64,000 nt of DNA. It comes from Planctomycetota bacterium. GTDB lineage: Bacteria > Planctomycetota > Phycisphaerae > Phycisphaerales > UBA1924. This document shows positions 1 through 13,522 of the stretch, piece after piece. Below the pieces are notes generated by a model. It had not been told where the DNA came from. It was given only the letters and a program-made list of their open reading frames with translations, and ran no database searches. A program made the position numbers and the translations under genes. The stretch is from assembly GCA_039819165.1 (NCBI GenBank), contig JBCBSM010000001.1, positions 2,356,001 through 2,420,000 of the forward strand. Direction: 5' to 3'. How positions within the stretch are numbered: the first letter of the stretch is position 1; each line of letters opens with the position of its first letter.

Positions 1-213
1 TTATCGCAATGCCGGCCGCCGCCGGCCGAACACCGCACGCCGGTGGAGGCGTCGTCGGCCGATCCGCCCTCCGTCTGGACGATTCTGCCGACCCTGGCCG
101 ATAACCGGGCGATGCGCCGGCACGCCGACCTCTATCTCGCGGTGCCATCGTCCATCCGGGCGGCGACCGCCAGGGCGATCGGGCTCGCGGGGCTCCGCGG
201 CCCGGTGGTCCGG

Positions 214-957
214 ATGGCGGCGCTGGTCCTCGCGATCGTGGCCGCCGCGGCGCTACCCGGCTGCGCGCGGAGGGCCGAGCTGCCCGTCACCCTCCAGTTC
301 AACAACGTCCGCTCGGTCGTGCTGCCCGGCTCGGTCGGCGGCGAGACCCGCGGCGAGTGGGACCAGATCTGGCCCACCGTCATCGGGCACCACAAGGTCC
401 GCAACCGGCTGGACCTGCGACCAACGTTCGAATCCACCGATCCCGTGGTCGACCAGATCGCCGGCGTCGAGGTCCGCGATTACACCGCAACCATCGTCGT
501 CGACGGCTTCCAGAGCCTGCCCGCGCTGCACCGCGACCTGGACAAGCTCCAGGGCACCGAGATCGCGCCCGGGCGACGGCTGCAGATCTCGCTGAGCGAC
601 GTGTCGCTGGGCTTCAGCGGCAACTTCATCAGCGCCCGCCGCACCGAAACCGTCCAGGGCCGCTCGCTGCCCGGCGCCACCGTCGTGCTCTACGACCGCG
701 ACGCCGACAGCCCCAGGGTGGTCCGGGCCGATGGCTCGGGGGCCTGGGTGGCTCCGGTCGAGACCTCGCCCGGCCAGCGCGCCATCGTGGGCTACAGCGT
801 GCCCCCCGGGGCCCGCGACCGCCCCGAGACCCGCCGCCACTTCCGCATCGATCTGGCCACCAACATCGCCGAGGACATCAACGAGCGGCGGTTCAACAAC
901 GAGATCGACTCGATGCGGGGCGGCGTGGGCGGCTTCGTGGCCCGCATCACGGGATAG
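214..957 (+). CDS. putative lipoprotein of unknown function
   Basis: I do not recognise the family. The chosen ATG opens a lipoprotein signal peptide: a hydrophobic stretch (MAALVLAIVAAAALPGC) ending in a lipobox with Cys at about residue 20, so export and lipidation are expected. A GTG three codons upstream (205) is an alternative, and the frame stays open to a GTG at 43, but those extra residues would bury the signal. The roughly 225-residue mature part is soluble with no transmembrane segment and has a repetitive beta-like character (LPGATVVLYDRDADSP, then GAWVAPVE). It ends 29 nt before a short-chain dehydrogenase, with a hairpin between them. The gene is probable from codon use and the signal; the function is unknown. 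Confidence 0.6.
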   Translation: MAALVLAIVAAAALPGCARRAELPVTLQFNNVRSVVLPGSVGGETRGEWDQIWPTVIGHHKVRNRLDLRPTFESTDPVVDQIAGVEVRDYTATIVVDGFQSLPALHRDLDKLQGTEIAPGRRLQISLSDVSLGFSGNFISARRTETVQGRSLPGATVVLYDRDADSPRVVRADGSGAWVAPVETSPGQRAIVGYSVPPGARDRPETRRHFRIDLATNIAEDINERRFNNEIDSMRGGVGGFVARITG

Positions 958-960
958 CCT

Positions 961-979
961 GCCCCCTCAGCGAGGGGGC
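961..979 (+). promoter_or_regulatory. hairpin covering the SD of the downstream dehydrogenase
   Basis: GCCCCCTC and GAGGGGGC form a perfect 8-bp stem around the loop AGC. The right arm holds the purine-rich GAGGGG that would be the ribosome binding site for the ATG at 987, so the stem may hide it. Without a real T-run (only TTCCC follows) it is less convincing as a terminator of the lipoprotein gene. Both roles are inferences from position. Confidence 0.45.
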
Positions 980-986
980 TTCCCAA

Positions 987-1796
987 ATGACTACCACGAA
1001 CGCACCGTCCGCCACCGCCGATTGGTTCCGACCGTCCTTCGCCGACCGCGTGGCCGTCGTCACCGGCGCCAGCGCGGGCATCGGCCTGGCGACCGCCCGC
1101 GCGCTGATCGACGGAGGCGCCACGGTCATCGTCAACGCCCGCCGCGCCGGCCGGCTCGACGAGTTGGTCGAGATGGCCCCCGAGCGGGTGCGGCCCATCG
1201 CCGGCGACGCCACCGAGCCCGAGCTGGTGCACCAGATGCTCGACGCGGCGCTGCAGCTCGCCGGTGCGGAGGCCGATCTGGTCGTCGCCAACGCGGGCCG
1301 GGGGCTGAAGGGCTCGCCGCTGGATTCCGACGCCGACGAGTGGGACGAGGTCCTGGACATCAACACCACCGCTGCCGCGAGGCTGATGCGGGCCGCCGTC
1401 CGCCGCATGCTGGCCGACGTGGGCGAGCACAAGGGCCCGCCGGTGCGGCCGCGGGACGTCGTGCTGCTGGGCTCGAGCGTGGGGCGGAACCTGTCGCCGT
1501 TCAGCAGCTTCTACGGCGCCGCCAAGGCCGCCGCCCACATGATCGCCGAGGCCATCCGCCGCGAGGCCGGCCCCCGCGGCATCCGCGTCACGACCATCGA
1601 GCCCGGCGTGGTCGCCACCGAGTTCCAGGACGCCGCGGGCTACGACCGCGCCACCTTCGGCGAGTTCATGGACGAGATCGGCCCGGTGCTCACGCCCGAG
1701 GACGTGGCCCGCACCATCCTGTTCGTGTGCGCGCACCCCGCGGGCGTGCACGTCAACGAGGTCATGGTCCGTCCGACGCGGCAGTCGTATCCGTGA
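987..1796 (+). CDS. short-chain dehydrogenase/reductase (SDR family)
   Basis: NAD(P)-dependent oxidoreductase of the classical SDR type, 269 aa, cytosolic. The cofactor motif TGASAGIG lies at residues 26-33, the NAG motif at 102-104, a serine pair (SS) at 163-164 and the catalytic YGAAK (Tyr176, Lys180), followed by the usual PGVVATEF segment. Length and motif spacing match classical SDRs. The substrate cannot be read from the sequence. The ATG is preceded by GAGGGG inside a hairpin. The gene converges on the PLAAT-like gene with only 6 nt between the stop codons. Confidence 0.9.
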   Translation: MTTTNAPSATADWFRPSFADRVAVVTGASAGIGLATARALIDGGATVIVNARRAGRLDELVEMAPERVRPIAGDATEPELVHQMLDAALQLAGAEADLVVANAGRGLKGSPLDSDADEWDEVLDINTTAAARLMRAAVRRMLADVGEHKGPPVRPRDVVLLGSSVGRNLSPFSSFYGAAKAAAHMIAEAIRREAGPRGIRVTTIEPGVVATEFQDAAGYDRATFGEFMDEIGPVLTPEDVARTILFVCAHPAGVHVNEVMVRPTRQSYP

Positions 1797-1802
1797 CGCG
1801 GT

Positions 1803-2219
1803 CTAGCGAGCCGGTCGTCGATCCGCGAGGGCCGCGAGCCCTACGCATGCCGTGACCAGCGCGAGCGATGCGATGCCGCGTACCTGGTCGCTTCGGCCAC
1901 GGCCCGTCGCGCATTCCGTGGCGAACGTCTCGCAATTCCAGAACAGCAGGTCGTACCCTCGCCGACCGATGGCCGCCAACGCACGCCGGGCGACACAATG
2001 TCCGGGCATCGCGTCGGGCGGAGTGACGACCGCAAACGAGCGGCCGCCGAGGAACTGCGTCCAGGCCACGCGCCGCACTCGGCCCCCTTCGCGGGGCTTG
2101 GCCAGCTCGACGACCCCCGGTGCAACGCCACCGAGCATCCCCACGAAGATGGCGTAGTGCCAGTACCAGCCCGTCCACACGCGGACCACGTCGCCTGTTT
2201 CGGGAAGCTGCCGTCCCAT
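1803..2219 (-). CDS. PLAAT/LRAT-like acyltransferase homologue with C-terminal membrane anchor
   Basis: A 138-aa protein resembling the H-rev107/PLAAT branch of the LRAT family (NlpC/P60-like thiol enzymes that act on phospholipid acyl chains). Visible: PETGDVVRVW at the N-terminus, His21 in WYWHYAIFVG, Cys96 in NCETF, then RSDQVR at 109-114 and a hydrophobic tail (about 116-132) ending in a basic cluster. From memory, vertebrate PLAAT3 has the same order: HWAIYVG, NCEHF, RSDQVR, a transmembrane tail and basic residues. The position of the second PLAAT histidine is Glu38 (VVELAKP against VVHLAPP). ATG 2219 follows a good AGGAGA site. It is divergent from an HTH gene across a 26-bp palindrome. 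Family call fairly firm; substrate unknown. Confidence 0.75.
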   Translation of the reverse strand: MGRQLPETGDVVRVWTGWYWHYAIFVGMLGGVAPGVVELAKPREGGRVRRVAWTQFLGGRSFAVVTPPDAMPGHCVARRALAAIGRRGYDLLFWNCETFATECATGRGRSDQVRGIASLALVTACVGLAALADRRPAR

Positions 2220-2261
2220 GCGCTCTCCTGCACGTCTGCCAGAAGCAGCCCGCGCCACCTG

Positions 2262-2287
2262 GCCGATGTCACAATTGTGACATCGGC
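2262..2287. promoter_or_regulatory. perfect 26-bp palindrome, probable operator
   Basis: Each 13-nt arm reads GCCGATGTCACAA towards the centre, and the two arms are exact reverse complements (core TGTCACAATTGTGACA). It lies in the 71-nt gap between two divergent genes and ends 3 nt before the ATG of the HTH gene, where no SD sequence is visible. That position suits an operator at which the HTH protein represses itself and possibly the PLAAT-like gene. The palindrome is seen directly; its role is inferred. Confidence 0.75.
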
Positions 2288-2290
2288 AGA

Positions 2291-2629
2291 ATGGCCAGTC
2301 AAGTCGAGGCAACGTTGAAGTTCAACGTCTCGGGGTCGCAGATCCGGGCTGTTCGTGGGGCACTCGGCCTGGATGGGGCGCAGTTCGCCGCGGTGCTAGC
2401 GGTGCACCCCGGCACGATCCGGCGATGGGAGGCCCATCACGACCAGCTGGTGGCGGTGGATGGGGTGGCCGCCGAGATCCTGGAACGCCTCATCGAGGAA
2501 GTGGAGTCAGCGAGCGAGCAGCGGGCACGCCGCGTGGGCGAAGAAATCGCCAGGGCTCTGCTGGTCGGGACCGCGGCGGCCGGGTTGTTCGTGCTGCTGA
2601 AGTGGTTGCTCGACGCGCCGGAGGATTGA
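2291..2629 (+). CDS. small HTH DNA-binding protein with C-terminal transmembrane anchor
   Basis: 112 aa. Residues about 15-65 look like an Xre/MqsA-type helix-turn-helix (SQIRAVRGALGLDGAQFAAV, then HPGTIRRWE, where the RRWE is typical of antitoxin-like regulators). A short charged helix (about 66-87) joins it to a hydrophobic segment near 89-106 (ALLVGTAAAGLFVLLKWLL), so the protein may be held at the membrane. The ATG is the first after the palindrome and has no visible SD, so a leaderless message is possible. It diverges from the PLAAT-like gene, whose product also ends in a hydrophobic tail. It converges on gdhA with 12 nt between the stops. Membrane tethering is an inference from hydrophobicity. 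Confidence 0.75.
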   Translation: MASQVEATLKFNVSGSQIRAVRGALGLDGAQFAAVLAVHPGTIRRWEAHHDQLVAVDGVAAEILERLIEEVESASEQRARRVGEEIARALLVGTAAAGLFVLLKWLLDAPED

Positions 2630-2641
2630 GCCAGCACCCTT

Positions 2642-4021
2642 TTACGGGAAGATGCCCCGCGTCTTGTAGACCTTGCCCAGGTGCTCCAGGGCCGCCAGGT
2701 AGCTTGCGGTCCGCATGTCGCACTCGTACCGCTGGCGGGCCAGCAGCGTGCGGCGGGCGGCCATGCACATGACCTTGTTCAGCTCGCGGTCCACCGTCTC
2801 GATGTCCCAGATCTGGCAGGCCTTGTTCTGCACCCACTCGAAGTAGCTCACCGTTACGCCGCCCGAGTTGCACAGGATGGCCGGCAGCACCTCGATGCCC
2901 CGGCGGTTCAGCACGCGGTCGGCCGCGGGCGTACACGGGGCGTTGGCGCCCTCGGCCACCACGCGGCACTGGAGCATCTCGGCCTCCCGCGGGCCGATCA
3001 TCTGCTCGAGGGCGGCGGGGATGAACGCGTCGACCGGGGTGCTGTAGAAGTCCTCCTTGGAGACCGCCTCGGCGCCCTTGCCGCCGCCGCTGCCGGTCGA
3101 TTCGCCGAAGCCCGAGATGCCGCCGTGCTGGTAGCTGTACTCGGCCAGGGCGTGGGCGTCGATGCCCGCGTCGTTGCGCAGCGCCCCGGTATGGTCCATC
3201 GTCGCGACGAGCGTGCCGCCCATGTCCTGCAGGATGCGGGCGCACCACGAGCCCACGTTGCCGAAGCCCAGGATGCTGAACCGCAGCCCCTGGATGGGGA
3301 TCTTGATCTGCGGCAGGATCTCGGCCATCACGTCGGCGATGCCCTGGCCGGTTGCCTTCTCGCGGCCCACCGACCCGCCGACCTCCACGGGCTTGCCCGT
3401 GACCACCCGCAGGCCCTCGTAGGCCGTCCGGCTGTTGGACATCTGGTACGTGTCGGCGATCCAGGCCATCGTCTGGGCGTTGGTGCCCACGTCGGGCGCC
3501 GGGATGTCGTAGTCCGGCCCGATGTCGTTCATGATCGCGCTGGTGAAGCGGCGGGTGACCCGCTCCATCTCCGCGGGCGTCAGCTTGCGGGGGTCGCACT
3601 TCACGCCGCCCTTGGCGCCGCCCAGGGGCAGCCGCGCCAGCGAGCACTTCATCGTCATGAGCAGCGCGAGCGCCTTGACGTCATCCAGGTGGACATCGGG
3701 GTGGAATCGCAGGCCGCCCTTGTAGGGGCCCAGCGCGTTGTTGTGCTGCACCCGATAGCCCTTGAAGAGGTGGTGGTGCCCATCCTCGAGGCGGACGGGG
3801 AAGTGCACCATCAGCTCGTTCTTGGGCTGGGCCAGGATGATCTTGACGCGGTGCTGCTGGTCGAGCATGTCGGCCGCGTGCAGCATGGTGCCCACGGTCT
3901 GGGTGTAGAGGTTGTTGGGGTCCTTGGGAAAGCCCAGTTCCTCGAACACCGGGTTGCGTGGCTCGTCCTCGCGGGCCGGATCGGCCGCGGTCCCCTCCGT
4001 CTGCGTCGCGATCGTCGTCAT
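2642..4021 (-). CDS. gdhA: Glu/Leu/Phe/Val dehydrogenase (glutamate dehydrogenase)
   Basis: Oxidative deamination of glutamate to 2-oxoglutarate and ammonia, or the reverse, cytosolic; 459 aa. The substrate domain has GPYKGGLRFHPDV and the catalytic-lysine segment GGAKGGVKCDPR. The Rossmann domain has LGFGNVGSW. A region rich in Gly and Ser (GFGESTGSGGGKG) sits within the nucleotide-binding half and looks like a lineage-specific insert. ATG 4021 (MTTIATQTEG) was chosen because the frame upstream is low-complexity and Arg-rich. Cofactor preference (NAD or NADP) cannot be decided here. It has no operon partner: upstream is a long gap before rpsA. Confidence 0.9.
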   Translation of the reverse strand: MTTIATQTEGTAADPAREDEPRNPVFEELGFPKDPNNLYTQTVGTMLHAADMLDQQHRVKIILAQPKNELMVHFPVRLEDGHHHLFKGYRVQHNNALGPYKGGLRFHPDVHLDDVKALALLMTMKCSLARLPLGGAKGGVKCDPRKLTPAEMERVTRRFTSAIMNDIGPDYDIPAPDVGTNAQTMAWIADTYQMSNSRTAYEGLRVVTGKPVEVGGSVGREKATGQGIADVMAEILPQIKIPIQGLRFSILGFGNVGSWCARILQDMGGTLVATMDHTGALRNDAGIDAHALAEYSYQHGGISGFGESTGSGGGKGAEAVSKEDFYSTPVDAFIPAALEQMIGPREAEMLQCRVVAEGANAPCTPAADRVLNRRGIEVLPAILCNSGGVTVSYFEWVQNKACQIWDIETVDRELNKVMCMAARRTLLARQRYECDMRTASYLAALEHLGKVYKTRGIFP

Positions 4022-4638
4022 GGCCTGCGTTGCCTCGCTGTCGCTGGGCGGGCGTTGCCCGCCATGCTGCGTCCGTTGTCTGCGTCCGCTCGTGGACGGA
4101 GCCGGCCGGCGACGCTCGCGCGCCCGGCTGGCCCAGGTACGAGCCGGCGGCCCGTCCGTTCGCCGCCGCCTCCACGGCATGTCGGCGGAACGGCCGCCGA
4201 TCTTGCGAACCGCTCGATCCGCGGCGGGTGCCGCGCGCCCGCACGCGCCGTGGTCGTCGGCGACCGCTTCGCCCTCCGGGCCGCCCTCCACGGCACCCAG
4301 AGCGGGAAGACAGCAAGGCTAGCCGGAGCATCCGCGATTAGCGAGGCCGCCGGGCGTCCGTATATCCCGGGCCGGGGGGGCGAAGCCGCACGTCCGGCCG
4401 CGATCCGACGCGGGGCGCCCGATTGGCTTGGTAAGCCGGGCAAGGCCTAGTATCTTCTTCGTATCCGCCGGGCCGGTCTGGGCGTGTGGTGGCGCCCCCG
4501 GACACCGAACATGAACCGCTGCCGCCGAGAGGCGGGCCGATCGCGTCAGGCGTTCGGCACGGCGGCGTGTCGCCCGACCGACGGGGAGCCGGCGGCCCCG
4601 ATCGATCCCGCGAGCACGCCACGACGAGACGCACGCAC
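4022..4638. other. intergenic region between gdhA and rpsA
   Basis: About 617 nt between divergent genes. No open frame here has a start, SD and composition like the real genes. TAGTAT at 4448-4453 could be a -10 box for rpsA, but I see no matching -35 at ideal spacing. The length suggests long leaders for one or both genes. No hairpin followed by a T-run was seen. Confidence 0.4.
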
Positions 4639-6387
4639 ATGGTGGACGAAACGCTGATCGCTTCCCTCGGTCTCGAAGACACCGACATGGACGCGATGAT
4701 CCGAGACGCGCTCGGAGACGAGGTCGCCCAGGGCAACATGGACGGCCTGATCGACGACCAGATCGCCGATCTGGAACCCGGCAAGATCATCAAGGGCCGC
4801 ATCATCGGCATCGCCGGCGACGACGCGGTCGTCGAGGTCGGCCTCAAGAGCGAGGGCCTGGTCCCGCTAGACGAGTTCGAGCAGGAGCCCAAGATCGGCG
4901 ACTCCGTCGACGTTCTGCTCAAGAGCCTCGAGGGCCAGAACGGCGTCGTCGAGGTGTCCAAGCGGCAGGCCGACCGCCAGATCGCCTGGAACCGCATCGT
5001 CGACAGCACCAAGGAGGACGACATCGTCGAGGGCCGGGTGATGAAGCAGATCAAGGGTGGTCTGCTGGTCGACATCGGCGTGCCGGTGTTCCTGCCCGCC
5101 AGCCAGGTCGATGTCCGCCGCCCGCACGACGTGCGGGACTTCGTGGGCCGCTCGATCCGAGCGATGGTGCTCAAGATCGATACCGATCGCCGCAACATCG
5201 TCATCAGCCGCCGCAAGCTGATCGAGAAGGAGCGCGACGCCGCCAAGAAGCGGCTGCTGGAGACCCTCGAGGAGGGCCAGCTCATCAAGGGCGTGGTCAA
5301 GAACATTGCCGACTTCGGCGCCTTCATCGATCTGGGCGGCATCGACGGCCTGCTGCACATCACCGACATGTCCTGGAGCCGCGTCAACCACCCCAGCGAG
5401 ATGGTCAAGGTCGACGACGAGGTCGAGGTCAAGGTGCTGTCGATCGATCTCCAGAAGGAGAAGATCGCGCTGGGCCTCAAGCAGAAGGACGCCAGCCCCT
5501 GGGAGGCCATCGAGGCCAAGTACCCCGTCAACTCCCGCGTCCGCGGCGAGGTCGTCAACATCATGTCCTACGGCGCCTTCGTCCGCCTCGAGGACGGCAT
5601 CGAGGGCCTGGTGCACATCTCCGAGATGAGCTGGACCCGCCGCGTCAACCACCCCTCGGAGGTGGTCAACCCCGGCGACGAGGTCGACGTGGTCATCCTC
5701 GAGATCGACAAGAACAAGCAGGAGATCAGCCTCGGCATGAAGCAGACCGAGGTGAACCCCTGGGAGCTGGTGGCCGAGAAGTACCCCCCCGGCACCGTCA
5801 TCGAGGGCACCGTCCGCAACCTGGCCAACTACGGCGCCTTCGTCGAGATCGAGCCGGGCATCGACGGCCTGCTGCACGTCAGCGACATGAGCTGGACCAA
5901 GAAGGTGACCCACCCCAACGAGGTGGTCGCCAAGGGCGACAACGTGCAATGCGTCGTGCTCGACGTCGACCAGGAGAAGCAGCGGATCAGCCTGGGCGTC
6001 AAGCAGCTCACCGAGGATCCCTGGCTCAGCGCCATCCCGGGCGCCTACCAGCCGGGCATGGTCGTCCGCGGCAAGGTCACCAAGATCACCAACTTCGGTG
6101 TCTTCGTCGAGCTCGAGGACGAGCTCGAGGGACTGCTGCACATCTCCGAACTGGCCGACCACAAGGTCGAGGACCCGCAGGAGGTCGTCAAGGCCGGCGA
6201 CGAGGTGGACGTCAAGATCCTCCGCGTCGACATCAACGATCGCAAGATCGGCCTGAGCCTCAAGCGGGCCCAGTGGGGCGACGCCGGCGACGGGAGCTAC
6301 TCCGCCGACGTCGACATGCCCACCCGCGGCGGCATGGACGACCACGACGCCATGGGGACCAACAAGATCAACCTCGGCGGCAGCTGA
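4639..6387 (+). CDS. rpsA: 30S ribosomal protein S1
   Basis: RNA-binding ribosomal protein that helps load mRNA on the 30S subunit; 582 aa, like the six-domain S1 of E. coli. Six S1 (OB-fold) repeats can be placed at about 46-110, 127-193, 211-283, 297-370, 384-457 and 471-543. The last four carry the FGAFI/YGAFV ... GLLHI signature. An acidic N-terminal helix region precedes them, and a Gly/Asp-rich tail with DDHDAM follows. ATG 4639 (MVDETLIASL) is preferred over upstream frames that lack S1 character; no strong SD is seen. Single-gene unit, probably ended by the hairpin at 6449. Confidence 0.95.
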   Translation: MVDETLIASLGLEDTDMDAMIRDALGDEVAQGNMDGLIDDQIADLEPGKIIKGRIIGIAGDDAVVEVGLKSEGLVPLDEFEQEPKIGDSVDVLLKSLEGQNGVVEVSKRQADRQIAWNRIVDSTKEDDIVEGRVMKQIKGGLLVDIGVPVFLPASQVDVRRPHDVRDFVGRSIRAMVLKIDTDRRNIVISRRKLIEKERDAAKKRLLETLEEGQLIKGVVKNIADFGAFIDLGGIDGLLHITDMSWSRVNHPSEMVKVDDEVEVKVLSIDLQKEKIALGLKQKDASPWEAIEAKYPVNSRVRGEVVNIMSYGAFVRLEDGIEGLVHISEMSWTRRVNHPSEVVNPGDEVDVVILEIDKNKQEISLGMKQTEVNPWELVAEKYPPGTVIEGTVRNLANYGAFVEIEPGIDGLLHVSDMSWTKKVTHPNEVVAKGDNVQCVVLDVDQEKQRISLGVKQLTEDPWLSAIPGAYQPGMVVRGKVTKITNFGVFVELEDELEGLLHISELADHKVEDPQEVVKAGDEVDVKILRVDINDRKIGLSLKRAQWGDAGDGSYSADVDMPTRGGMDDHDAMGTNKINLGGS

Positions 6388-6448
6388 CTCGGCGACGGCT
6401 GAGCGTCCTGCCCGCCCCGTCCGGCCGGACGAAGTCCATGCGAACCAA

Positions 6449-6478
6449 CAGCAGCCCGGGCGCGTGCTCGGGCTGCTG
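6449..6478 (+). terminator. hairpin after rpsA, possible terminator
   Basis: CAGCAGCCCG and CGGGCTGCTG pair perfectly (10 bp) around a 10-nt loop, 62 nt after the rpsA stop. No clean T-run follows (TGCTATTGTG), so intrinsic termination is not certain; it could also be a 3' stabilising stem. Confidence 0.5.
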
Positions 6479-6565
6479 TGCTATTGTGCGACGGCTTCTT
6501 TGGTCGCGGGCGAGCCGGATCGACTACGCCGCCGTGCGGTTCCGCATCGCGAGCGGGGTCGGGGC

Positions 6566-6646
6566 CTACATCAGGGCGATGAAGCTCAGCACGGTGAGGA
6601 AGGCGATCCGCTTGCCGTTCTCGGACACTCGGAGCATGTTCTTCAC
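6566..6646 (-). CDS. putative 26-aa membrane peptide
   Basis: A short open frame from GTG 6646 to TAG encodes a 26-residue peptide beginning MKNMLRVSENGKRI and ending in a hydrophobic half (AFLTVLSFIALM). A good SD (GAGAGGAG) lies about 7 nt upstream of the GTG. The charge pattern, basic N-terminal half then a single hydrophobic helix, fits a small membrane peptide. It sits alone between rpsA and the MarR gene on the opposite strand. No function can be assigned; the support is the SD, the start position and the amphipathic layout only. Confidence 0.4.
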   Translation of the reverse strand: MKNMLRVSENGKRIAFLTVLSFIALM

Positions 6647-6867
6647 GGGGGACTCCTCTCTGTGGATGTGTTGCCGACGAGCGGCACCTCAACAGGTTCA
6701 ACCCCGATGCCAAACCGGCCCGCCACGCCCCTGGGATGCCTCCGGCGGGCTGCCGAATCCGGCCCGGGGGTTATCGACCCCGTGAACGTTGGCTCCGGGC
6801 GACGCCCCCACGCAACACGTTGCGGTCGGGCAACGCATGGGCGAACGAATGCGCCGCGCCGGCGAAT

Positions 6868-6883
6868 ATGCATGCACATGCAT
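6868..6883. promoter_or_regulatory. inverted repeat upstream of the MarR gene
   Basis: ATGCATG and CATGCAT flank CA, giving a near-palindrome about 45 nt before the MarR start. MarR proteins commonly bind such sites at their own promoter. A related inverted repeat lies before the hydrolase gene at 7432. Autoregulation is inferred. Confidence 0.45.
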
Positions 6884-6928
6884 GTGTTTGCCCCTCCGGA
6901 CGAACCCGACTCAGCCATGGAGAGCAGG

Positions 6929-7381
6929 ATGACCACGCAACCCACCACCGACGACCTGGCCCTCGCCGCCGAGTTCGATGGCTGCCTCGCCACGGCGGTG
7001 CGGCTGGTGGACCGGGTGATCGCCTCCACGTTCGACGAGGGCCTCCGCGATCTCGGCCTGCGGTCGACGCAGGTGACGCTCCTGGTGTACCTCGCGGCGC
7101 TCGGCTGGCCGACCCAATCCGAGCTCGCCGAGGCAACGATGACGGACCAGACCACGCTGTCCCGCAACCTGGAGCGGCTCGCCGATCGCGGGCTGGTCCG
7201 CCGCGAGGCCGACGCCGACGACCAGCGGGTCGTTCGCTACGCCCTGAGCGCCGGCGGCCGCACCGTGCTGGGCGATGCGCTCCCGCACTGGAGGCGGGCC
7301 CAGCGGACGATCGCCGCCCGCCTGGGCGAGGACCTGTCCGCGGCGCTGCGGTCCGCGGCCGGAGCACTGAACACGACCTGA
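6929..7381 (+). CDS. MarR family transcriptional regulator
   Basis: 150-aa winged-helix repressor. The HTH region is QSELAEATMTDQTTLSRNLE (recognition helix), followed by the wing (ADADDQRVVRYALSAGGR), which is the typical MarR D-x-R-...-L-T-x-x-G pattern. ATG 6929 is preferred over ATG 6917 because GGAG is then correctly spaced. It lies upstream of the alpha/beta hydrolase in the same orientation, with a short inverted repeat in each promoter region, so it probably controls itself and the hydrolase. The ligand is unknown. Confidence 0.85.
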   Translation: MTTQPTTDDLALAAEFDGCLATAVRLVDRVIASTFDEGLRDLGLRSTQVTLLVYLAALGWPTQSELAEATMTDQTTLSRNLERLADRGLVRREADADDQRVVRYALSAGGRTVLGDALPHWRRAQRTIAARLGEDLSAALRSAAGALNTT

Positions 7382-7431
7382 CCGCCCCCGGAGCAGCCCG
7401 TCTCGGCCGACACGCCGCCGCGGGCATTTAG

Positions 7432-7443
7432 ATGTAGATACAT
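7432..7443. promoter_or_regulatory. inverted repeat upstream of the hydrolase gene
   Basis: ATGTA and TACAT flank GA. The site is AT-rich in a GC-rich gap and lies 58 nt before the hydrolase ATG. Its layout (5-nt arms, 2-nt spacer) resembles the 6868 site before the MarR gene. Candidate MarR operator; inferred only. Confidence 0.4.
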
Positions 7444-7500
7444 GTTATTGAGCCCAACCGAGTGAGTGCTCCACGCACCACGCACGCAGGAGACCGAACG

Positions 7501-8529
7501 ATGATCCGCAACGCACGCACACTGGCCCGCGCTCTTGCGCTTGCCGCCGCCCTCACGCTGGTTGCCGGCACGGCCCGGGCGGGCGATGCCGCTGCCTCGA
7601 CGGGCACCGGCACCTCTGCCGATACGGCATCCGCCGCGACCACCGCCGCCGAGCCGCGCGTCTATCACCGCACGATGCAGATCAACGGGCTGGACATCTT
7701 CTACCGCGAGGCGGGCCCGGCCGACGCGCCCGTCGTGCTGCTGCTGCACGGCTTCCCGACGTCGAGCCACATGTACCGCGACCTGATCCCCAGGCTCGCG
7801 GGCGAATTCCGCGTGATCGCGCCCGACTACCCGGGCTACGGCGAGAGCGCCACGCCCGGCCGCGACGAGTACGACTACACGTTCGCGAACGCCGCGGCCA
7901 TCGTCGAGAAGCTCCTCGAGCAACTCGGCGTCGAGCGATTCAGCGTATACCTCATGGACTACGGCGCGCCCGTGGGATACAGGCTCTTCGAGCGCAACCC
8001 CGAGGCCGTGCAGTCGTTCATCATCCAGAATGGCAACGCCTACGACGAGGGCCTCCGCGACTTCTGGGAGCCGATCAAGGCGTACTGGGCCGATCCGACC
8101 CAGGAGAACCGAGACGCCCTCCGCGGCCTGCTCACGCTCGAGGCCACCAAATGGCAGTTCTACACCGGCGCGCGCACGCCCGAGGTGATCAGCCCCGACA
8201 ACTGGAACCACATCCAGCCCAAGCTCGATCGTCCGGGCAACGACGAGATCCAGCTCGACTACTTCTACGACTACCGCACCAACGTCGAGCGCTACCCCGA
8301 GTGGCAGCGTCTGTTCCGCGAGCACCAGCCGCCCGCGCTGATTACCTGGGGCGAGGGCGATTTCATCTTCCCCGCCGAGGGCGCGTACCCCTACCAGCGC
8401 GACCTCGAGGACGTCGAGCTGCACATCCTCGACACGGGCCACTTCGCCCTCGAGGAGGACGGCGACCTCATCGCCACGCTCATGATCGACTTCCTCCGAA
8501 GGAAGATCGTCGATGCCGACGACGAATGA
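7501..8529 (+). CDS. secreted alpha/beta hydrolase (epoxide hydrolase / haloalkane dehalogenase-like)
   Basis: 342 aa with a Sec signal peptide (hydrophobic stretch ending near TARA, residue 27). The fold markers are the oxyanion segment HGFPTSSHMYRDLIP, a nucleophile elbow with Asp (LMDYGAPVGY) rather than Ser, and the catalytic His in DTGHFALEEDG near the C-terminus. An Asp nucleophile points to the epoxide hydrolase/dehalogenase branch rather than esterases. TWGEGDFIFP is the usual strand before the acid residue. Its neighbour is a MarR regulator. The substrate cannot be predicted; a periplasmic or outer location is expected. Confidence 0.85.
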   Translation: MIRNARTLARALALAAALTLVAGTARAGDAAASTGTGTSADTASAATTAAEPRVYHRTMQINGLDIFYREAGPADAPVVLLLHGFPTSSHMYRDLIPRLAGEFRVIAPDYPGYGESATPGRDEYDYTFANAAAIVEKLLEQLGVERFSVYLMDYGAPVGYRLFERNPEAVQSFIIQNGNAYDEGLRDFWEPIKAYWADPTQENRDALRGLLTLEATKWQFYTGARTPEVISPDNWNHIQPKLDRPGNDEIQLDYFYDYRTNVERYPEWQRLFREHQPPALITWGEGDFIFPAEGAYPYQRDLEDVELHILDTGHFALEEDGDLIATLMIDFLRRKIVDADDE

Positions 8530-8589
8530 TCGCTCGCTCGGACGCAAGCACCGCCGCCGCCCCGCCGCTTGCGGCGGCACCTGCGTGCG

Positions 8590-10659
8590 CTAGCAGCCCG
8601 CGTCGAAGGCGTTCTGGAATGCGAGGAAGTCGAAGAAGGTCAGCAGGCCGTCGCCGTCGAAGTCGGCGATCGGGTCACCGGCATCGAACGCATTCTGGAA
8701 GGCCAGCAAATCGAACAGCGTGAGCTCGCCGTCGCCATCCAGATCGGCCGGGCAGCAGTCCGCCAGATTAAACGTCACGAGCTGGCCGTCCTGCGTCGTG
8801 ATAACGCCGGAGTCGCCCAGGAAGCCCACGCTGCTCGTGCTCTGGATCGCGACGCGACCGACTGGCTTGGGCGCAAACGGATCGTGGATGTCGTACACGC
8901 TGGCGCCGTTGCCCGACGCGAGCAGCACCCCGACCTGGCGACTCAGGTCCAGGAAGCTGCCCGCGGGCTGGTCGATGGTGCCGGCGACGGCCAGCGATTC
9001 CACGTCGGTGGCGTCGATGATCGAGAAGTCGTCCCCCACCGTCGCGAGCACGCCCGGCCCGATGATCTCGAGGTCGTTCACGAAGCCGTTGACGGTCACC
9101 TCGCTCAGCACCGCTGGCGACGCCGGGTCGGACACGTCGACCGCCACGATGCGCGCGTCGTCGAACGAGCTGCCGACCTTCACGTATGCAACGCCGCTTC
9201 CGAGGGCGACGCGATTGGCCGGCCCAACGTCGAGCGTGGCGATCTCAACCAGGGCTCCGGGGTCGGTGGCGTCGTAGACGACCAGTCCCTCGCTGGTGCT
9301 CGGTGCGAACACGAGCCCATCGCGGGCCGCGACCTCCAGGACGGGATCGGCGAGCGGCGTCGTGCCGACCACCCGCGGGTCGGTCGGGTCTGCGACGGAG
9401 ATCGCAACGATCGACGGTGCATCCGCACCAGAAGTGGCAAAGAGCATGGCGCCATCGAGGGCGACTCCGCCGAAGAGATCAGCCAGCGGAAGCGTCGCGA
9501 TGGAGGCGGGCCGGGCCGGATCGGACAGATCGACGACGCGGATGCCGGTATCCTGGACGCCCCCGGTCCGGAACACCGTGTAGCCCGTGTCGCCATCGAT
9601 GGCGATGTCGAACAGCGTGTCGTCGCCGAACCCGGCCGTGCCGAGCACCGGAGTGCCGGCCGGATCACGTGCATCAAGGAGCCGCAGGTCGTTCGCCGAG
9701 TCGGCGATCGTTACGATGCCATCGTCGACGTCGATGGCTCCGATGCCCGACGGCGTGCCGTACCGGCCGACGGTCCGCGGCGCCGCGGGGTCGGCTATGT
9801 CGACCACGTCCACCCGACCCGGTTGCGCGGCGACGTAGAGCGTGCTGCCCTCTATGCGCACATCGATCGCGGTTGCATCCGGGGCGTACGACGCCACGAG
9901 TCCCGGCGCCGACGGATCGCGGACATCGAAGATCTGGACGCCCCCGCCACTCTCGAAGGGCTCGCGGCCATCCGCCACGAATGCGAAGTCCCCGCTCATG
10001 GCGATCCCTCGGGCGAGCCCAGGCGTGTCCACGGTGGCAAGGAGCTCGGGGCTTGCTGGCTCGCGGACGTCGACCACGCTCAGGCCGGCCGCGCCATCCG
10101 CGATGAACGCGAAGCCATCGCGCACGATCACGTCGCGAGCCTCGCCCGGCGTGTTCGCAAGGCCGACGCGGAATGGCCGCGGCAGGTCGAGCTCGACGAT
10201 CTGCAGCCCCGCATTGCCGGCAGCGATGTACGCGAGATCGTCGACCACGTCGACCGCGAAGCCGAAGCCGGCATCGGAGAACGAGCCGATCTCGACGACG
10301 CTGCGCGGATCCTCGATGTCGTAGATCCGCAGCCCGCTTGGTCCGGCTGCGGCGTATAGCGTGGTCCCGCGGATCGCGAATCGCTGCGCCTCGCCCGGCA
10401 CCGAGAACGACGAGATCTCCTCGGGCGCGAGGGGATCGACGACGTCGAAGACCACGATCTGGCTCCTGAAGGGCGAAGAACTCACGAATGCGAAGCCGCC
10501 ATCGCGCTCGACGTGACGCGCGATGAACGAGGAGTCCGCGGACCCCAAGAAGTCGCGATCCGCGCACCGCACGCTCGTCGTCTGGGCCAGCGAGTGGGTG
10601 CACAGGGCCACCGCGATCCCGCAGGCCGTCAGCCGAGTCTTCGTTCGAAGGGCCGTCAT
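8590..10659 (-). CDS. secreted LVIVD-repeat protein with C-terminal GC-type dockerin
   Basis: 689 aa. A signal peptide ([20 protein letters not shown], cleavage near SLAQ) is followed by a long array of about 45-residue beta-propeller-like repeats of the LVIVD type (units such as [20 protein letters not shown] and [11 protein letters not shown]). The protein ends in two dockerin-like calcium repeats ([20 protein letters not shown] and [20 protein letters not shown]) and DAGC. ATG 10659 has a GGGAGG SD. The terminal Gly-Cys dockerin is the type seen in Phycisphaerales surface proteins and probably serves in surface anchoring. Ligand and role are unknown. Confidence 0.85.
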
Positions 10660-10938
10660 CGGTTCCTCCCCGTTCTTCTTGAGCCGGAGCCCGGAGCGTC
10701 CCGCCTTCGGCAGGCGGTCGGCCCGTGTTTCCCGCGATTCGATCACCCGCCACCCGTCCGTGCACCGGCTTTGGCGGCTCAGTCTCATCTAGTCTTGAAC
10801 GTGATAGTCCCCGATCGACTCGGGGTTGCGGGGGATCGCCCGCATGGGCCGGCCGCCGGGGGCCCGCACGCGGCTCGTATAATGGGAATGCCGGCACGGT
10901 GGCTGCGCGCCGGCAGATCTGCCCAGCAGGAGCCGAAC

Positions 10939-12672
10939 ATGACCCCGACCAGCACCAGCGGTACATCCACGTTCACCGGTCCCGGCCTCACCAGCGATGG
11001 CCAGGTGGATCCCGGGGCCGTCACCATCTCGGGCATCGCCCTGGACGCGACCTACGGGCCCGACAACCCGCCGGCGTCGATCCACAACTTCGACCGCGAC
11101 ATCGCCGCCCCGGGCCAGTTCCCCTACACGCGGGGCCTCTACCCGCAGGGCTACCGCAGCCGGCTGTGGACCATGCGGCAGTTCGCGGGCTTCGGGTCGG
11201 CCGACGACACCAACGCCCGCTTCAAGTACCTGCTGCGGGCCGGCAAGACCACCAAGACCAAGGCCAACACCGGGCTGTCCACCGCCTTCGACCTGCCCAC
11301 GCTCATGGGCCGCGACAGCGACGACGCGCTCAGCGTCGGCGAGGTCGGCAAGTGCGGCGTGGCCATCGACACCATCGAGGACATGCACCGCCTCTACGCC
11401 GACATCCCCATCGACGAGGTCACCGTCAGCCAGACCATCAACGGGCCGGCCTGCGTCATCTGGGCCATGTACCTCGCGATGGCCAAGCAGCGCGGCTTCG
11501 CGATCGCCGACCTCGGCGGCACCCTCCAGAACGACATCCTCAAGGAGTTCCACGCCCAGAACGAGTTCATCTATCCCCCCGAGCCAAGCGTGAAGCTGGT
11601 CGTCGACACCATCGAGTTCCAGAGCAAGCACATGCCCAAGTGGAACTCGGTGAGCATCAGCGGCTACCACATCCGCGAGGCCGGCAGCACCGGGCCGCAG
11701 GAGCTCGCCTTCACCCTCCGCGACGGCATGGAGTACGTCGAGGCCTGCCTGCTCCGCGGGCTGGACATCGATCAGTTCGCGCCGCGGCTGTCGTTCTTCT
11801 TCAACAGCCACAACGAGTTCTTCGAGGAGGTCTGCAAGCTCCGCGCCGCCCGCCGCATCTGGGCCCGCATGATGCGCGACCGCTACGGCGCCAAGAACGA
11901 GCGCAGCTGGTTCATGAAGACCCACGTGCAGACCGCCGGCTGCAGCCTCACCGAGCAGCAGCCCCTCAACAACATCGTCCGCGTCGCCTACCAGGCCATG
12001 GCCGGCGTGCTGGGCGGCTGCCAGAGCCTGCACACCGACAGCATGGACGAGACCCTCGGCCTGCCCACCGAGCAGGCCGTCACCGTCGCGCTCCGCACCC
12101 AGCAGATCCTCGCCCACGAGACCGGCGTCACCCGCACCGTCGATCCGCTGGGTGGCAGCTACTTCGTCGAGGCCCTCACCGACGAGGTCGAGAAGGAGGC
12201 CCTGGGCTACATCCAGGAGATCGACGACATGGCCGGCGGCGCCTGGAAGGGCATGGCCGATGGCCAACCCACCGGTGGCTACGGCGGCGTCGTCGAGGGC
12301 ATCCACCAGGGCTACTTCCGACGCAAGATCGCCGAGGCCTCCTACCGCTTCAGCGAGGAGTGCGAGGCCCACGACCGCATCATCGTCGGCGTCAACGAGT
12401 ACGTGGACGAGGAAGAAGACCGCCCGATCGACATCCTCCAGATCGGCCCGGAGGTCGAAGAGACCCAGCTCGAGCGGCTGGCCGCCTTCAAGAAGAACCG
12501 CGACCAGGCCGCCACCGACCGCGCCCTGGACGCCATCCGCACCGCCTGCCAGCAGGGCGAGAACGTGATGCCCCACCTCATCGACGGCGCCCTCGCCAAC
12601 GCCACGCTCGGCGAGATGGTGCAGGCGATGGCGGATATCTACGGGCGGTATGCGGGTGGGCCGGAGTGGTAG
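10939..12672 (+). CDS. acyl-CoA mutase large subunit (methylmalonyl-/isobutyryl-CoA mutase family)
   Basis: 577 aa, matching the substrate-binding TIM-barrel half of B12-dependent acyl-CoA mutases and lacking the B12-binding domain (no DxHxxG motif), so it must pair with a separate small subunit. Motifs: [64 protein letters not shown] and [10 protein letters not shown]. At the residue that is Arg in methylmalonyl-CoA mutases (Arg207, which binds the substrate carboxylate) this protein has Gln207 ([14 protein letters not shown]), as in isobutyryl-CoA mutases. An AGGAG SD precedes ATG 10939. The exact substrate is open. Its stop codon is one base from that of the convergent DUF3800 gene. Confidence 0.85.
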
Positions 12673-12673
12673 G

Positions 12674-13522
12674 CTAGCTAGCCAACTGCTTTTCCGAGTT
12701 GGCTATGCGAACGAGCCCGGTACTTAGCCGCTCGAAGAGGGCGAGTTCGGACTTGGGAATCACCACCCCACGTCCGTTGTACCTGTTCGGCCAGTCTCGT
12801 AGGAGTTGGCAGGCCTCATGGAACGTCGGCTCTGACGTCGCATTCCGTCGACAAGGCAGCGAGATGCAACCCGCCGCCACGTCGACGGCTTGAATGAGCC
12901 GTGATGACTCGACGACCTGGAAGCTGATGCTGCTAGCGAAATTGTTGTCCCGCAACGAACCGGCAAAGCAGATCGCTCCGCTAGGTCCAGTGCCATTGGT
13001 CCACATCGGCGTCATGACGCGCTTGAACGATCTGCGAGCTGCGCCTTCTTTATGTGGCCAGTCAGAAATCAACTCAACACGGTCTGGTGCCTCGTCGCGA
13101 GCATACTGAGCGATGCGCTGCAGCAGATTCTCGAACGCCAACTCCCACGATCCGTCGAAGTGCTCCTCCTTTGCCTTGGACACTACCGACTTGACGCTCA
13201 CGACAAGCTTTGCTTCCGCAGCCCGCATTGCTTGGAGACAACGGAGGTGCGTTACGCGAAGAGCCTCACGCTCACGTGTGCGGGCCTTGAAATCTTCCCA
13301 ATCCAAGCCCAAGGACTGGGCAGCCTCGTAGACCTTTGGATCCGCCATGTTGAACTTGATTGGGAGCCCATGCCCCGTTTGCTCAATGGCTATGCGTTCG
13401 AGGTCATCTTCCAGCTCGGATAAACGCGCGCGTTCGACAACGAGCGCCGCGAGAACAAGGCCCTTCGCTCCGCCCGGCTTGAACGTGAACTCGCTGTGAT
13501 CGAGCCCAACCACCCACTCCAT
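12674..13522 (-). CDS. DUF3800-like protein
   Basis: 282 aa. It resembles DUF3800 proteins (predicted RNase H-like fold): an N-terminal acidic strand (VVGLDHSEF), a central acidic strand (RVELISDWPHKEGAARRSF) and the C-terminal SRLIQAVDVAAGCI helix, the counterpart of the common LQLADLVAGAI. ATG 13522 follows GGAGG. Base composition is visibly more AT-rich than its neighbours, with codons such as TTT, AAA and GAA that are rare elsewhere here, so transfer is likely. It converges on the mutase with a 1-nt gap. A second, diverged DUF3800 gene is at 45.1-45.9 kb. Biological role unknown. Confidence 0.65.
   Translation of the reverse strand: MEWVVGLDHSEFTFKPGGAKGLVLAALVVERARLSELEDDLERIAIEQTGHGLPIKFNMADPKVYEAAQSLGLDWEDFKARTREREALRVTHLRCLQAMRAAEAKLVVSVKSVVSKAKEEHFDGSWELAFENLLQRIAQYARDEAPDRVELISDWPHKEGAARRSFKRVMTPMWTNGTGPSGAICFAGSLRDNNFASSISFQVVESSRLIQAVDVAAGCISLPCRRNATSEPTFHEACQLLRDWPNRYNGRGVVIPKSELALFERLSTGLVRIANSEKQLAS

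What the first reader, a model, noticed from the sequence alone, without database searches (positions are those of the whole stretch)
1803..2629. Candidate two-gene system: lipid enzyme plus membrane-tethered repressor
Both products end in a hydrophobic segment: the PLAAT-like protein (about 116-132) and the HTH protein (89-106). They are divergent and share one operator. A membrane-held HTH protein facing an enzyme that may alter membrane lipids suggests a sensor loop, or a toxin-antitoxin-like or defence unit, in which membrane state controls DNA binding. I know of no described system of this kind.
Basis: inference. Interest (0 to 1): 0.7.

Follow-up and report, generated by a model that had tools for sequence, protein, structure and literature searches.

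The report
Membrane-tailed repressor paired with lipid enzyme
Two small neighbouring bacterial genes, one for a membrane-anchored relative of lipid-cutting enzymes and one for a DNA-binding protein that also seems to carry a membrane anchor, stay together in unrelated places of several genomes and look like a self-controlled, possibly anti-virus, module for which no earlier description was found.

Summary
Window 1803-2219(-) encodes an LRAT/PLAAT-type protein (Pfam LRAT 47.3 bits, cut-off 24.3; closest solved: human PLAAT3). 2315-2629(+) encodes an XRE/HigA-like HTH protein with a hydrophobic C-terminal helix. A perfect 26-bp palindrome (2262-2287) separates them. Searches from the HTH side gave eight further relatives that include the tail; six have a clear LRAT gene divergently next door, two (PLA3, G553) a co-directional LRAT-like gene below Pfam's cut-off. 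The tail is conserved in sequence (mean identity 0.48, shuffled 0.18; HTH domain 0.53). Two operator types recur and follow the recognition helix. The module is sporadic (7 of 163 family genomes), at unrelated loci, some beside restriction, CBASS or E1-E2-JAB genes. Distant tail-HTH proteins adjoin other tail-anchored partners (kinase; unknown protein). Best reading: a mobile repressor-effector module at the membrane, probably anti-phage or toxin-type. Module real about 0.95; membrane tail 0.85; defence/toxin role 0.45. Binding, insertion, activity and toxicity are untested.

The parts
1803..2219 (-). LRAT/PLAAT-like gene, 138 aa (P0001), stop included
   Evidence: ORF; Pfam LRAT 47.3 bits, cut-off 24.3; human PLAAT3 best solved relative by profile of the nine paired proteins (E 6e-14) and by fold (4dot: Foldseek E 2e-6, TM 0.61 by query and 0.80 by target length)
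2157..2159 (-). His21, putative catalytic base, invariant in 9 of 9 paired proteins
   Evidence: alignment A6; catalytic role from knowledge of the family
1932..1934 (-). Cys96 of the NCE motif, putative nucleophile, invariant in 9 of 9 paired proteins
   Evidence: alignment A6; catalytic role from knowledge of the family
1821..1889 (-). C-terminal hydrophobic helix of the LRAT protein (residues 111-133)
   Evidence: Kyte-Doolittle 1.95; helix in AF2 model, mean pLDDT 90.6
2262..2287 (.). perfect 26-bp palindrome, putative shared operator; its core resembles sites upstream of relatives
2274..2302 (-). sigma-70-like promoter match for the LRAT gene; its -10 lies inside the palindrome
   Evidence: consensus match only, 9 of 12
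2315..2629 (+). HTH gene, 104 aa from TTG (alternative start ATG 2291, 112 aa), stop included
   Evidence: GAGG 5 nt upstream and agreement with starts of relatives
2333..2434 (+). XRE/HigA-like helix-turn-helix (residues 7-40)
   Evidence: AF2 model mean pLDDT 89.7; HigA2, P22 C2, Aca3 in profile search; Xre-like/HTH_3 hits below cut-off
2552..2608 (+). hydrophobic helix of the HTH protein (residues 80-98), putative membrane anchor
   Evidence: hydropathy; mean identity 0.48 against 0.18 shuffled, 0 of 2000 shuffles as high

Best explanation
A mobile regulator-effector module that works at the cytoplasmic membrane. The HTH protein, anchored by its C-terminal helix, binds the palindrome between the genes and represses its own gene and the LRAT gene. 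The LRAT/PLAAT protein, also tail-anchored with its catalytic domain in the cytosol, hydrolyses or transfers acyl chains of membrane lipids or lipidated proteins. In the resting cell it is kept low by the repressor and perhaps held through tail-tail contact. When infection or another insult changes the membrane or removes the HTH protein, repression is lifted and the enzyme damages or remodels the membrane, stopping the cell or the invader. Shown: the protein families, the conserved pairing, the conserved tail sequence, and recurrent operator-like sites that match the recognition helix. Inferred: membrane insertion, DNA binding, repression, enzymatic activity, trigger, anti-phage role.
For: Pairing: of 8 HTH-found relatives with the tail, 6 have an LRAT neighbour above Pfam's cut-off, PLA3 one at E 3e-12 by the session's profile (16.2 Pfam bits) and G553 a weak one (session profiles E 6e-4 and 1e-5, 13.8 Pfam bits, His and NCE kept); the 10 partial HTH-only hits have none. 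Orientation: 7 of 9 divergent, 2 of 9 co-directional with gaps of 28 and 5 bp. Flanking genes of the nine loci share almost nothing besides the pair, and module GC is below the flank mean in 9 of 9: transfer as a unit. HTH tail identity 0.48 against 0.18 shuffled. Gly85 is invariant, and residues 86 and 90 are small (G/S/T and G/A) in 9 of 9. Blind 12-mer comparison of upstream regions: 7 of 36 real pairs reach 11 or 12 matches, 1 of 150 shuffled pairs does; the three 12s are TAGCGTATGCTA-type sites (G220, G264, G289), the four 11s CACAATTGTGA-type sites (window, G161, G254, G248). The second group has HPGT[IV][RH]RWE, the first HP[TV]T[VL][SN]RWE. Context: type I RM plus CBASS cyclase and SAVED-HNH effector at G161, HsdS/HsdR at G553; E2-E1-JAB at G289; integrase beside PLA3. 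Distant tail-HTH proteins: G361 adjoins a kinase with a hydrophobic C-terminus (Mad6/PD-T4-6-like) and a SIR2-HerA pair; G426 adjoins HmaA. A permuted NlpC/P60 relative, Tox-Act1, is a phospholipase toxin with a membrane-associated immunity protein (PMC12994826, passages).
Against: No activity, toxicity or phage assay exists. Membrane insertion rests on hydropathy and a predicted helix; no dedicated topology predictor was at hand. The window's own copy lies between a short-chain dehydrogenase and a glutamate-dehydrogenase-family gene, and three window neighbours match no PADLOC model. Hand-picked neighbours at G254 (2), G248 (2), G220 (2) gave no PADLOC match; at G264 the DUF4062 gene gave none, and a transposase-like ORF (Pfam HTH_Tnp_1) matched the DrmC model, which I take for a transposase. 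No background rate of defence neighbours was measured. Neither window protein matches any PADLOC model at E 0.01. Palindromes are individually convincing only for the window (0 of 500), weakly for G289 (21 of 500) and G264 (50 of 500); in the other six, 91 to 454 of 500 shuffles do as well. No shared operator was found for PLA3 or G553, the two whose LRAT assignment is weakest. 11 of 18 LRAT-bearing family genomes show no partner. The Mantel correlation (r 0.48, p 0.003) does not separate co-evolution from shared descent.
Confidence: 0.55

Rival explanations
1. A toxin-antitoxin pair in the strict sense: the HTH protein neutralises the LRAT enzyme by direct binding (tail to tail in the bilayer) as well as autorepressing, and loss of the labile HTH protein frees the toxin.
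For: HTH closest to HigA2 and the NatRT complex among solved structures; HTH-first co-directional order with 28 and 5 bp gaps in PLA3 and G553; both proteins small with hydrophobic tails; small residues in the HTH tail.
Against: Seven of nine are divergent, unusual for type II TA (recalled); LRATs without a recognised HTH partner are common (11 of 18), so the enzyme need not be lethal; the LRAT tail is less conserved than the HTH tail (0.24 against 0.12 shuffled).
Confidence: 0.25
2. A membrane-stress or lipid-homeostasis circuit without defence role: the tethered repressor reads bilayer state and sets the level of a lipid-remodelling or lipoprotein-acylating enzyme.
For: The window copy has metabolic neighbours; a bacterial permuted NlpC/P60 enzyme, LnsA, acts in lipoprotein N-acylation (PMC7387801, passages); at 5 of 9 loci (window, G254, G248, G220, G264) no clear defence gene was recognised among the few neighbours scanned.
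Against: Sporadic presence (7 of 163 family genomes; 2 of 7 genus genomes), low relative GC and different loci suit a mobile accessory gene better than homeostasis; distant tail-HTH proteins sit beside defence genes.
Confidence: 0.25
3. The hydrophobic helix of the HTH protein is not a membrane anchor but a buried oligomerisation helix, and the pair is an ordinary autoregulated operon.
For: The whole 68-100 stretch is one continuous helix in the model; small residues at 85, 86 and 90 in 9 of 9 also suit helix packing.
Against: 19-residue hydropathy 2.02-2.52 in 9 of 9, ending 3-7 residues from the C-terminus; partners in the distant cases (kinase, unknown protein) have hydrophobic C-termini too.
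Confidence: 0.12
4. Chance neighbourhood of two mobile genes.
For: Both genes are sporadic.
Against: At least 6 and probably 8 of 8 adjacency in unrelated loci, in two gene orders.
Confidence: 0.02

Closest known systems
Human PLAAT/HRASLS family (PLAAT3, H-REV107) and LRAT, Pfam PF04970
   Same: Same Pfam family, same fold (TM 0.80 by target length to 4dot), conserved His and NCE-Cys, C-terminal membrane tail (the human tail is recalled).
   Different: Bacterial; the residue aligned with PLAAT3's His in VVHLAPPSE is Glu here and varies among relatives; paired with an HTH gene.
HigBA / Xre-antitoxin type II toxin-antitoxin systems
   Same: HigA2-like HTH in a small two-gene unit with an operator-like palindrome.
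   Different: Effector is a likely lipid enzyme, not an RNase (HigB recalled); the HTH protein has a hydrophobic tail; mostly divergent.
Tox-Act1 (T6SS effector, PMC12994826, passages)
   Same: Permuted NlpC/P60 phospholipase acting on membranes, with a membrane-associated immunity protein.
   Different: Secreted, different clade (Tox-Act1, not LRAT); no HTH partner in the passages read.
ToxR/CadC-type membrane-bound one-component regulators (recalled)
   Same: DNA-binding domain held at the membrane by a single helix.
   Different: Here an XRE-type HTH, and only 3-7 residues follow the hydrophobic window, so no periplasmic sensor.
CapH, RM C-proteins and other defence-island repressors
   Same: Small XRE-type DNA-binding proteins; CapH and C-protein structures appear in the fold list, none below E 0.001.
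   Different: Those are soluble and belong to named systems (recalled); no PADLOC match for the window pair.

Membership tests
LRAT/PLAAT enzymes (PF04970) | Profile match above the curated cut-off | tested here: met
   Window protein 47.3 bits, cut-off 24.3; 7 of 9 paired proteins pass, PLA3 (16.2) and G553 (13.8) do not
LRAT/PLAAT enzymes (PF04970) | Permuted NlpC/P60 fold with catalytic His before Cys (H...NCE) | tested here: met
   fold match to human PLAAT2/3/4; H21 and C96 invariant in 9 of 9
LRAT/PLAAT enzymes (PF04970) | Third polar catalytic residue | tested here: inconclusive
   Glu in the window where PLAAT3 has His (alignment); E, H, D or other residues in other rows
LRAT/PLAAT enzymes (PF04970) | Phospholipase or acyltransferase activity | not testable with these tools
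   needs biochemistry
Type II toxin-antitoxin | Adjacent conserved pair, one partner a DNA-binding protein with an operator-like site | tested here: met
   conserved adjacency; operator-like sites; actual binding and autoregulation not tested
Type II toxin-antitoxin | Effector toxic alone and neutralised by the partner | not testable with these tools
   needs expression assays
ToxR/CadC membrane regulators | Winged HTH plus transmembrane helix plus periplasmic sensor | tested here: not met
   XRE-type HTH; 3-7 residues after the hydrophobic window
Known anti-phage systems (PADLOC-DB 2.0.0) | Match of either protein to a system model | tested here: not met
   0 families at E 0.01 for both window proteins

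The most novel reading that the evidence does not exclude
A class of membrane-tethered XRE switches with interchangeable tail-anchored effectors (LRAT lipid enzyme, Ser/Thr kinase, an unknown small protein) forms a previously undescribed layer of bacterial immunity. The tethered repressor senses disturbance of the inner membrane directly through its conserved small-residue helix and releases the operator, so that membrane state controls effector production without a soluble signal.
Probability: 0.25. Interest if true: 0.85.

Novelty: new variant of a known kind. Interest (0 to 1): 0.62.

Why it matters
If right, it would be a repressor-effector unit in which both partners are membrane-anchored and the effector is a relative of human PLAAT phospholipases. 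It would give a testable case of a bacterial transcription switch that reads the membrane through a bare tail helix, and the same tail-HTH proteins could serve as bait for finding new effectors. Bacterial permuted NlpC/P60 enzymes are called poorly understood in a passage of PMC7387801, and this ties one group to a regulator.

Tried and rejected
Relatives on phages and plasmids: P0001 has no match in phages and one in plasmids (Acinetobacter, beside a viperin gene; the gene upstream is not an HTH protein by eye); P0002 has none in either. Viral contigs: 18 LRAT loci, 0 of 18 with the HTH partner by profile; the HTH profile confirmed no relative there.

Other phyla: the single genome-contig scan used one degenerate pattern and gave 7 loci, all from Planctomycetota by title. 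Six of these carry the same proteins as family genomes already found, so absence elsewhere is not shown.

Single origin of paired LRATs: the tree (30 rows) puts 7 of 9 in one poorly resolved group with 2 unpaired ones, while G220 and G553 fall elsewhere on very long branches; undecided. LRAT tail as a mark of the pair: rejected, several unpaired LRATs have one too. Tail-HTH as unique to the pair: rejected, 10 of 28 small non-LRAT HTH hits also have a hydrophobic segment of 1.9 or more (G634's, at 1.87, is not among the ten). Seven of the ten are one subfamily of family f50 without one constant partner. Second partner family (A7): 6 of 392 genomes, 2 of 6 with a tail-HTH neighbour, the two it was built from. 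Empty site: in six other genus genomes the gene after the short-chain dehydrogenase is FKBP-like (read by eye), and the glutamate dehydrogenase is not in the 1.5 kb held, so the right border was not traced.

Papers: seven answered searches. None listed a paper whose title or abstract start tells of a tail-anchored HTH paired with an LRAT; some returned no paper. The library lacks most subscription papers and preprints.

Full report
What is there. The window lies in an assembly of 35 contigs. Relatives in its family include records titled Phycisphaeraceae and Phycisphaerales, so it is taken as Planctomycetota. Between a short-chain dehydrogenase gene (stop at 1796) and a Glu/Leu/Phe/Val dehydrogenase gene lie two divergent small genes. 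The left one, 1803-2219 on the minus strand, encodes 138 aa matching Pfam LRAT over 6-107. Its AF2 model (mean pLDDT 90.6, nine-row alignment) matches human HRASLS3/PLAAT3 first (Foldseek E 2.2e-6, TM 0.61 by query and 0.80 by target length). A sequence profile of the nine paired proteins finds the same human enzymes (E 6e-14) and picornavirus-type 2A proteins. The right one encodes an XRE-type HTH with a long C-terminal helix (model mean pLDDT 89.7). Its profile finds HigA2 antitoxin (E 3e-4), P22 C2 repressor and Aca3; the NatRT complex, C-proteins and CapH are in the fold list, where no match is below E 0.001.

Start codon. TTG 2315 has GAGG five bases upstream and lines up with the starts of relatives, so the protein is probably 104 aa and the palindrome lies 28-53 bp upstream of it.

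Operator. GCCGATGTCACAATTGTGACATCGGC is a perfect 26-bp palindrome. None of 500 shuffles equals it, and its inner 20-mer is found once in the assembly with up to three mismatches. It covers the -10 of a sigma-70-like match reading into the LRAT gene. A blind comparison of the 80 bp upstream of nine HTH genes ranks the same kind of site first. The three best pairs (12 of 12) are TAGCGTATGCTA-type sites in G220, G264 and G289. The next four (11 of 12) are CACAATTGTGA-type sites in the window, G161, G254 and G248. Seven of 36 real pairs reached 11 or 12; of 150 shuffled pairs one reached 11 and none 12. G248 also carries a TATCGTATGCGATA site, so it resembles both classes. The recognition helix differs between the groups: HPGT[IV][RH]RWE against HP[TV]T[VL][SN]RWE. 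As simple palindromes, six of the nine are not better than chance, and no common site was found for PLA3 and G553.

Conserved pair. P0002 alone found one relative in 200 other genomes of the order, G161. A two-sequence HTH profile against 163 genomes of the family gave 17 genomes: seven matches that span the protein including the tail (the two founders among them), and ten that cover only the HTH. All seven have an LRAT gene next door; none of the ten loci (about 1.5 kb each side) has one. With a profile of these seven, a genome-contig scan gave seven loci, six being the family cases and one new, PLA3; all seven have an LRAT or LRAT-like neighbour. With the same profile a search of 392 genomes of the phylum gave 90 genomes with a match; the 30 loci held were examined, and only the window and G553 have an LRAT-like neighbour. 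So there are nine pairs, eight of eight from the HTH side. Seven of the nine partner proteins pass Pfam's LRAT cut-off; PLA3 (16.2 bits; session profile E 3e-12) and G553 (13.8 bits; session profiles E 6e-4 and 1e-5) do not, so G553 in particular is LRAT-like by motif and weak profile only. A repeat with a nine-row profile over 301 genomes of the order and 23 of G553's order added no tail-bearing case, one partial hit aside (G015). In the reverse direction, LRAT is present in 18 of 163 family genomes; in 7 the partner is there and in 11 it was not seen, four of these loci being cut by contig ends, G232's 174 bases from the gene. Seven pairs are divergent with 69-118 bp between the genes; PLA3 and G553 are co-directional, HTH first, gaps 28 and 5 bp.

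Mobility. Comparison of the flanking genes (called by a simple script, 100 aa or more) finds nothing shared besides HTH and LRAT, except an HsdS pair (G161, G553) and one 79% identical protein (G254 and window 10360). The module's GC is below the flank mean in nine of nine (z from -0.4 to -3.1). Within the genus, seven of seven genomes keep the neighbouring short-chain dehydrogenase gene, but only the window's and G248 have the HTH protein, and in G248 it lies on another contig than that gene. G161's copy lies near a large serine recombinase and PLA3's next to a tyrosine integrase.

The tail. By Kyte-Doolittle (19 residues) the HTH tail scores 2.02-2.52 in nine of nine and ends 3-7 residues from the C-terminus; the LRAT tail scores 1.45-2.37 in nine of nine. 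In the HTH protein the tail (80-98) has mean pairwise identity 0.48 against 0.18 for shuffles of the same residues, the HTH domain 0.53, the linker between them 0.18, and the last residues 0.11. Gly85 is invariant; position 86 is G, S or T and position 90 G or A in nine of nine. This is more than hydrophobicity requires and suggests specific helix contacts or a sensing surface. The LRAT tail is less conserved (0.24 against 0.12). HTH and LRAT distances correlate (Mantel r 0.48, p 0.003, n 9), which shared descent alone could give.

Wider class. More distant HTH proteins with a hydrophobic tail exist: 10 of 28 small non-LRAT HTH hits examined. G361's is followed by a protein kinase with a hydrophobic C-terminus that matches PADLOC Mad6 (E 9e-53), PD-T4-6 (E 1e-39) and other kinase models (34 in all), and it is divergent from a SIR2-HerA pair. 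G426's is divergent from an HmaA helicase (E 2e-194). G634 and G519 share a second pair: HTH proteins 56% identical over 89 residues and an unknown partner with hydrophobic C-terminus, 39% over 79 residues. That partner occurs in 6 of 392 genomes, with a tail-HTH neighbour in only those two.

Defence context. PADLOC and Pfam on hand-picked neighbours: G161 has HsdM, HsdS, HsdR, a CBASS cyclase and a SAVED-HNH effector within about 10 kb; G553 has HsdR and HsdS adjacent; G289 has an E2-E1-JAB protein about 2 kb away; PLA3 has a weak restriction-like gene. Nothing matched at G254, G248 and G220 (two proteins each) or for three window neighbours. At G264 a transposase-like ORF matched the DrmC model and the DUF4062 gene nothing. 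Proteins were chosen by eye and no background rate was measured, so this is a lead and not a test.

Mechanism. Committed reading: autorepressed, tail-anchored repressor plus tail-anchored lipid enzyme, mobile, most likely stopping the cell or the invader when the membrane is disturbed or the repressor is lost. Enzymatic action on acyl chains follows from the family: PLAATs are phospholipases/acyltransferases, LnsA acts in lipoprotein N-acylation (PMC7387801, passages), and the permuted relative Tox-Act1 is a membrane-damaging phospholipase (PMC12994826, passages). YiiX, a permuted bacterial relative, was found with a fatty acid in its active site (PMC3142127, passages). A Vibrio pangenome study lists an LRAT family gene in a cluster associated with defence genes (PMC12409351, one passage). 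Which of defence, toxin-antitoxin or homeostasis applies cannot be settled from sequence.

Novelty. No paper on a tail-anchored HTH paired with an LRAT appeared in the listings. Parts are known kinds (PLAAT enzymes, XRE repressors); the combination, with a conserved membrane-type tail on the repressor, is a new variant, and possibly a class.

Noticed in passing
L097 (NZ_CP114603.1, Acinetobacter towneri plasmid) 3989-5640: An LRAT-family gene directly precedes a viperin-family antiviral gene, with an upstream hypothetical gene in the same direction.
   Followed up: no
L124 (G361) 1359-5789: SIR2-HerA pair divergent from a tail-HTH gene followed by a Mad6/PD-T4-6-like kinase with hydrophobic C-terminus.
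   Followed up: partly
L123 (G426) 5751-9769: Tail-HTH gene divergent from an HmaA-like helicase, with a recombinase-like gene (by eye) on the other side.
   Followed up: partly
L043, L046, L048, L052, L056, L057, L058 (seven genomes of family f50): A different XRE protein subfamily with a long hydrophobic C-terminal part, well conserved (58-95% identity among the six compared by BLAST), in differing surroundings; four loci have a related neighbouring gene.
   Followed up: partly
L116 (G161) 2-13181: Compact island: type I RM genes interrupted by a CBASS cyclase and SAVED-HNH effector, then the HTH-LRAT pair, then a large serine recombinase.
   Followed up: partly
window 987-4021: In six other genomes of the genus the gene downstream of the short-chain dehydrogenase is FKBP-like (by eye), not glutamate dehydrogenase, so local order is rearranged here.
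   Followed up: partly
L139, L140 (G296, G465): Second unknown partner family (DGSRLHxHE..HxDxxDP) occurs without a recognised tail-HTH neighbour.
   Followed up: no
L120 (G264) 8721-8996: A transposase-like ORF (Pfam HTH_Tnp_1) matches the PADLOC DrmC model at E 5e-16; the model may be contaminated.
   Followed up: no
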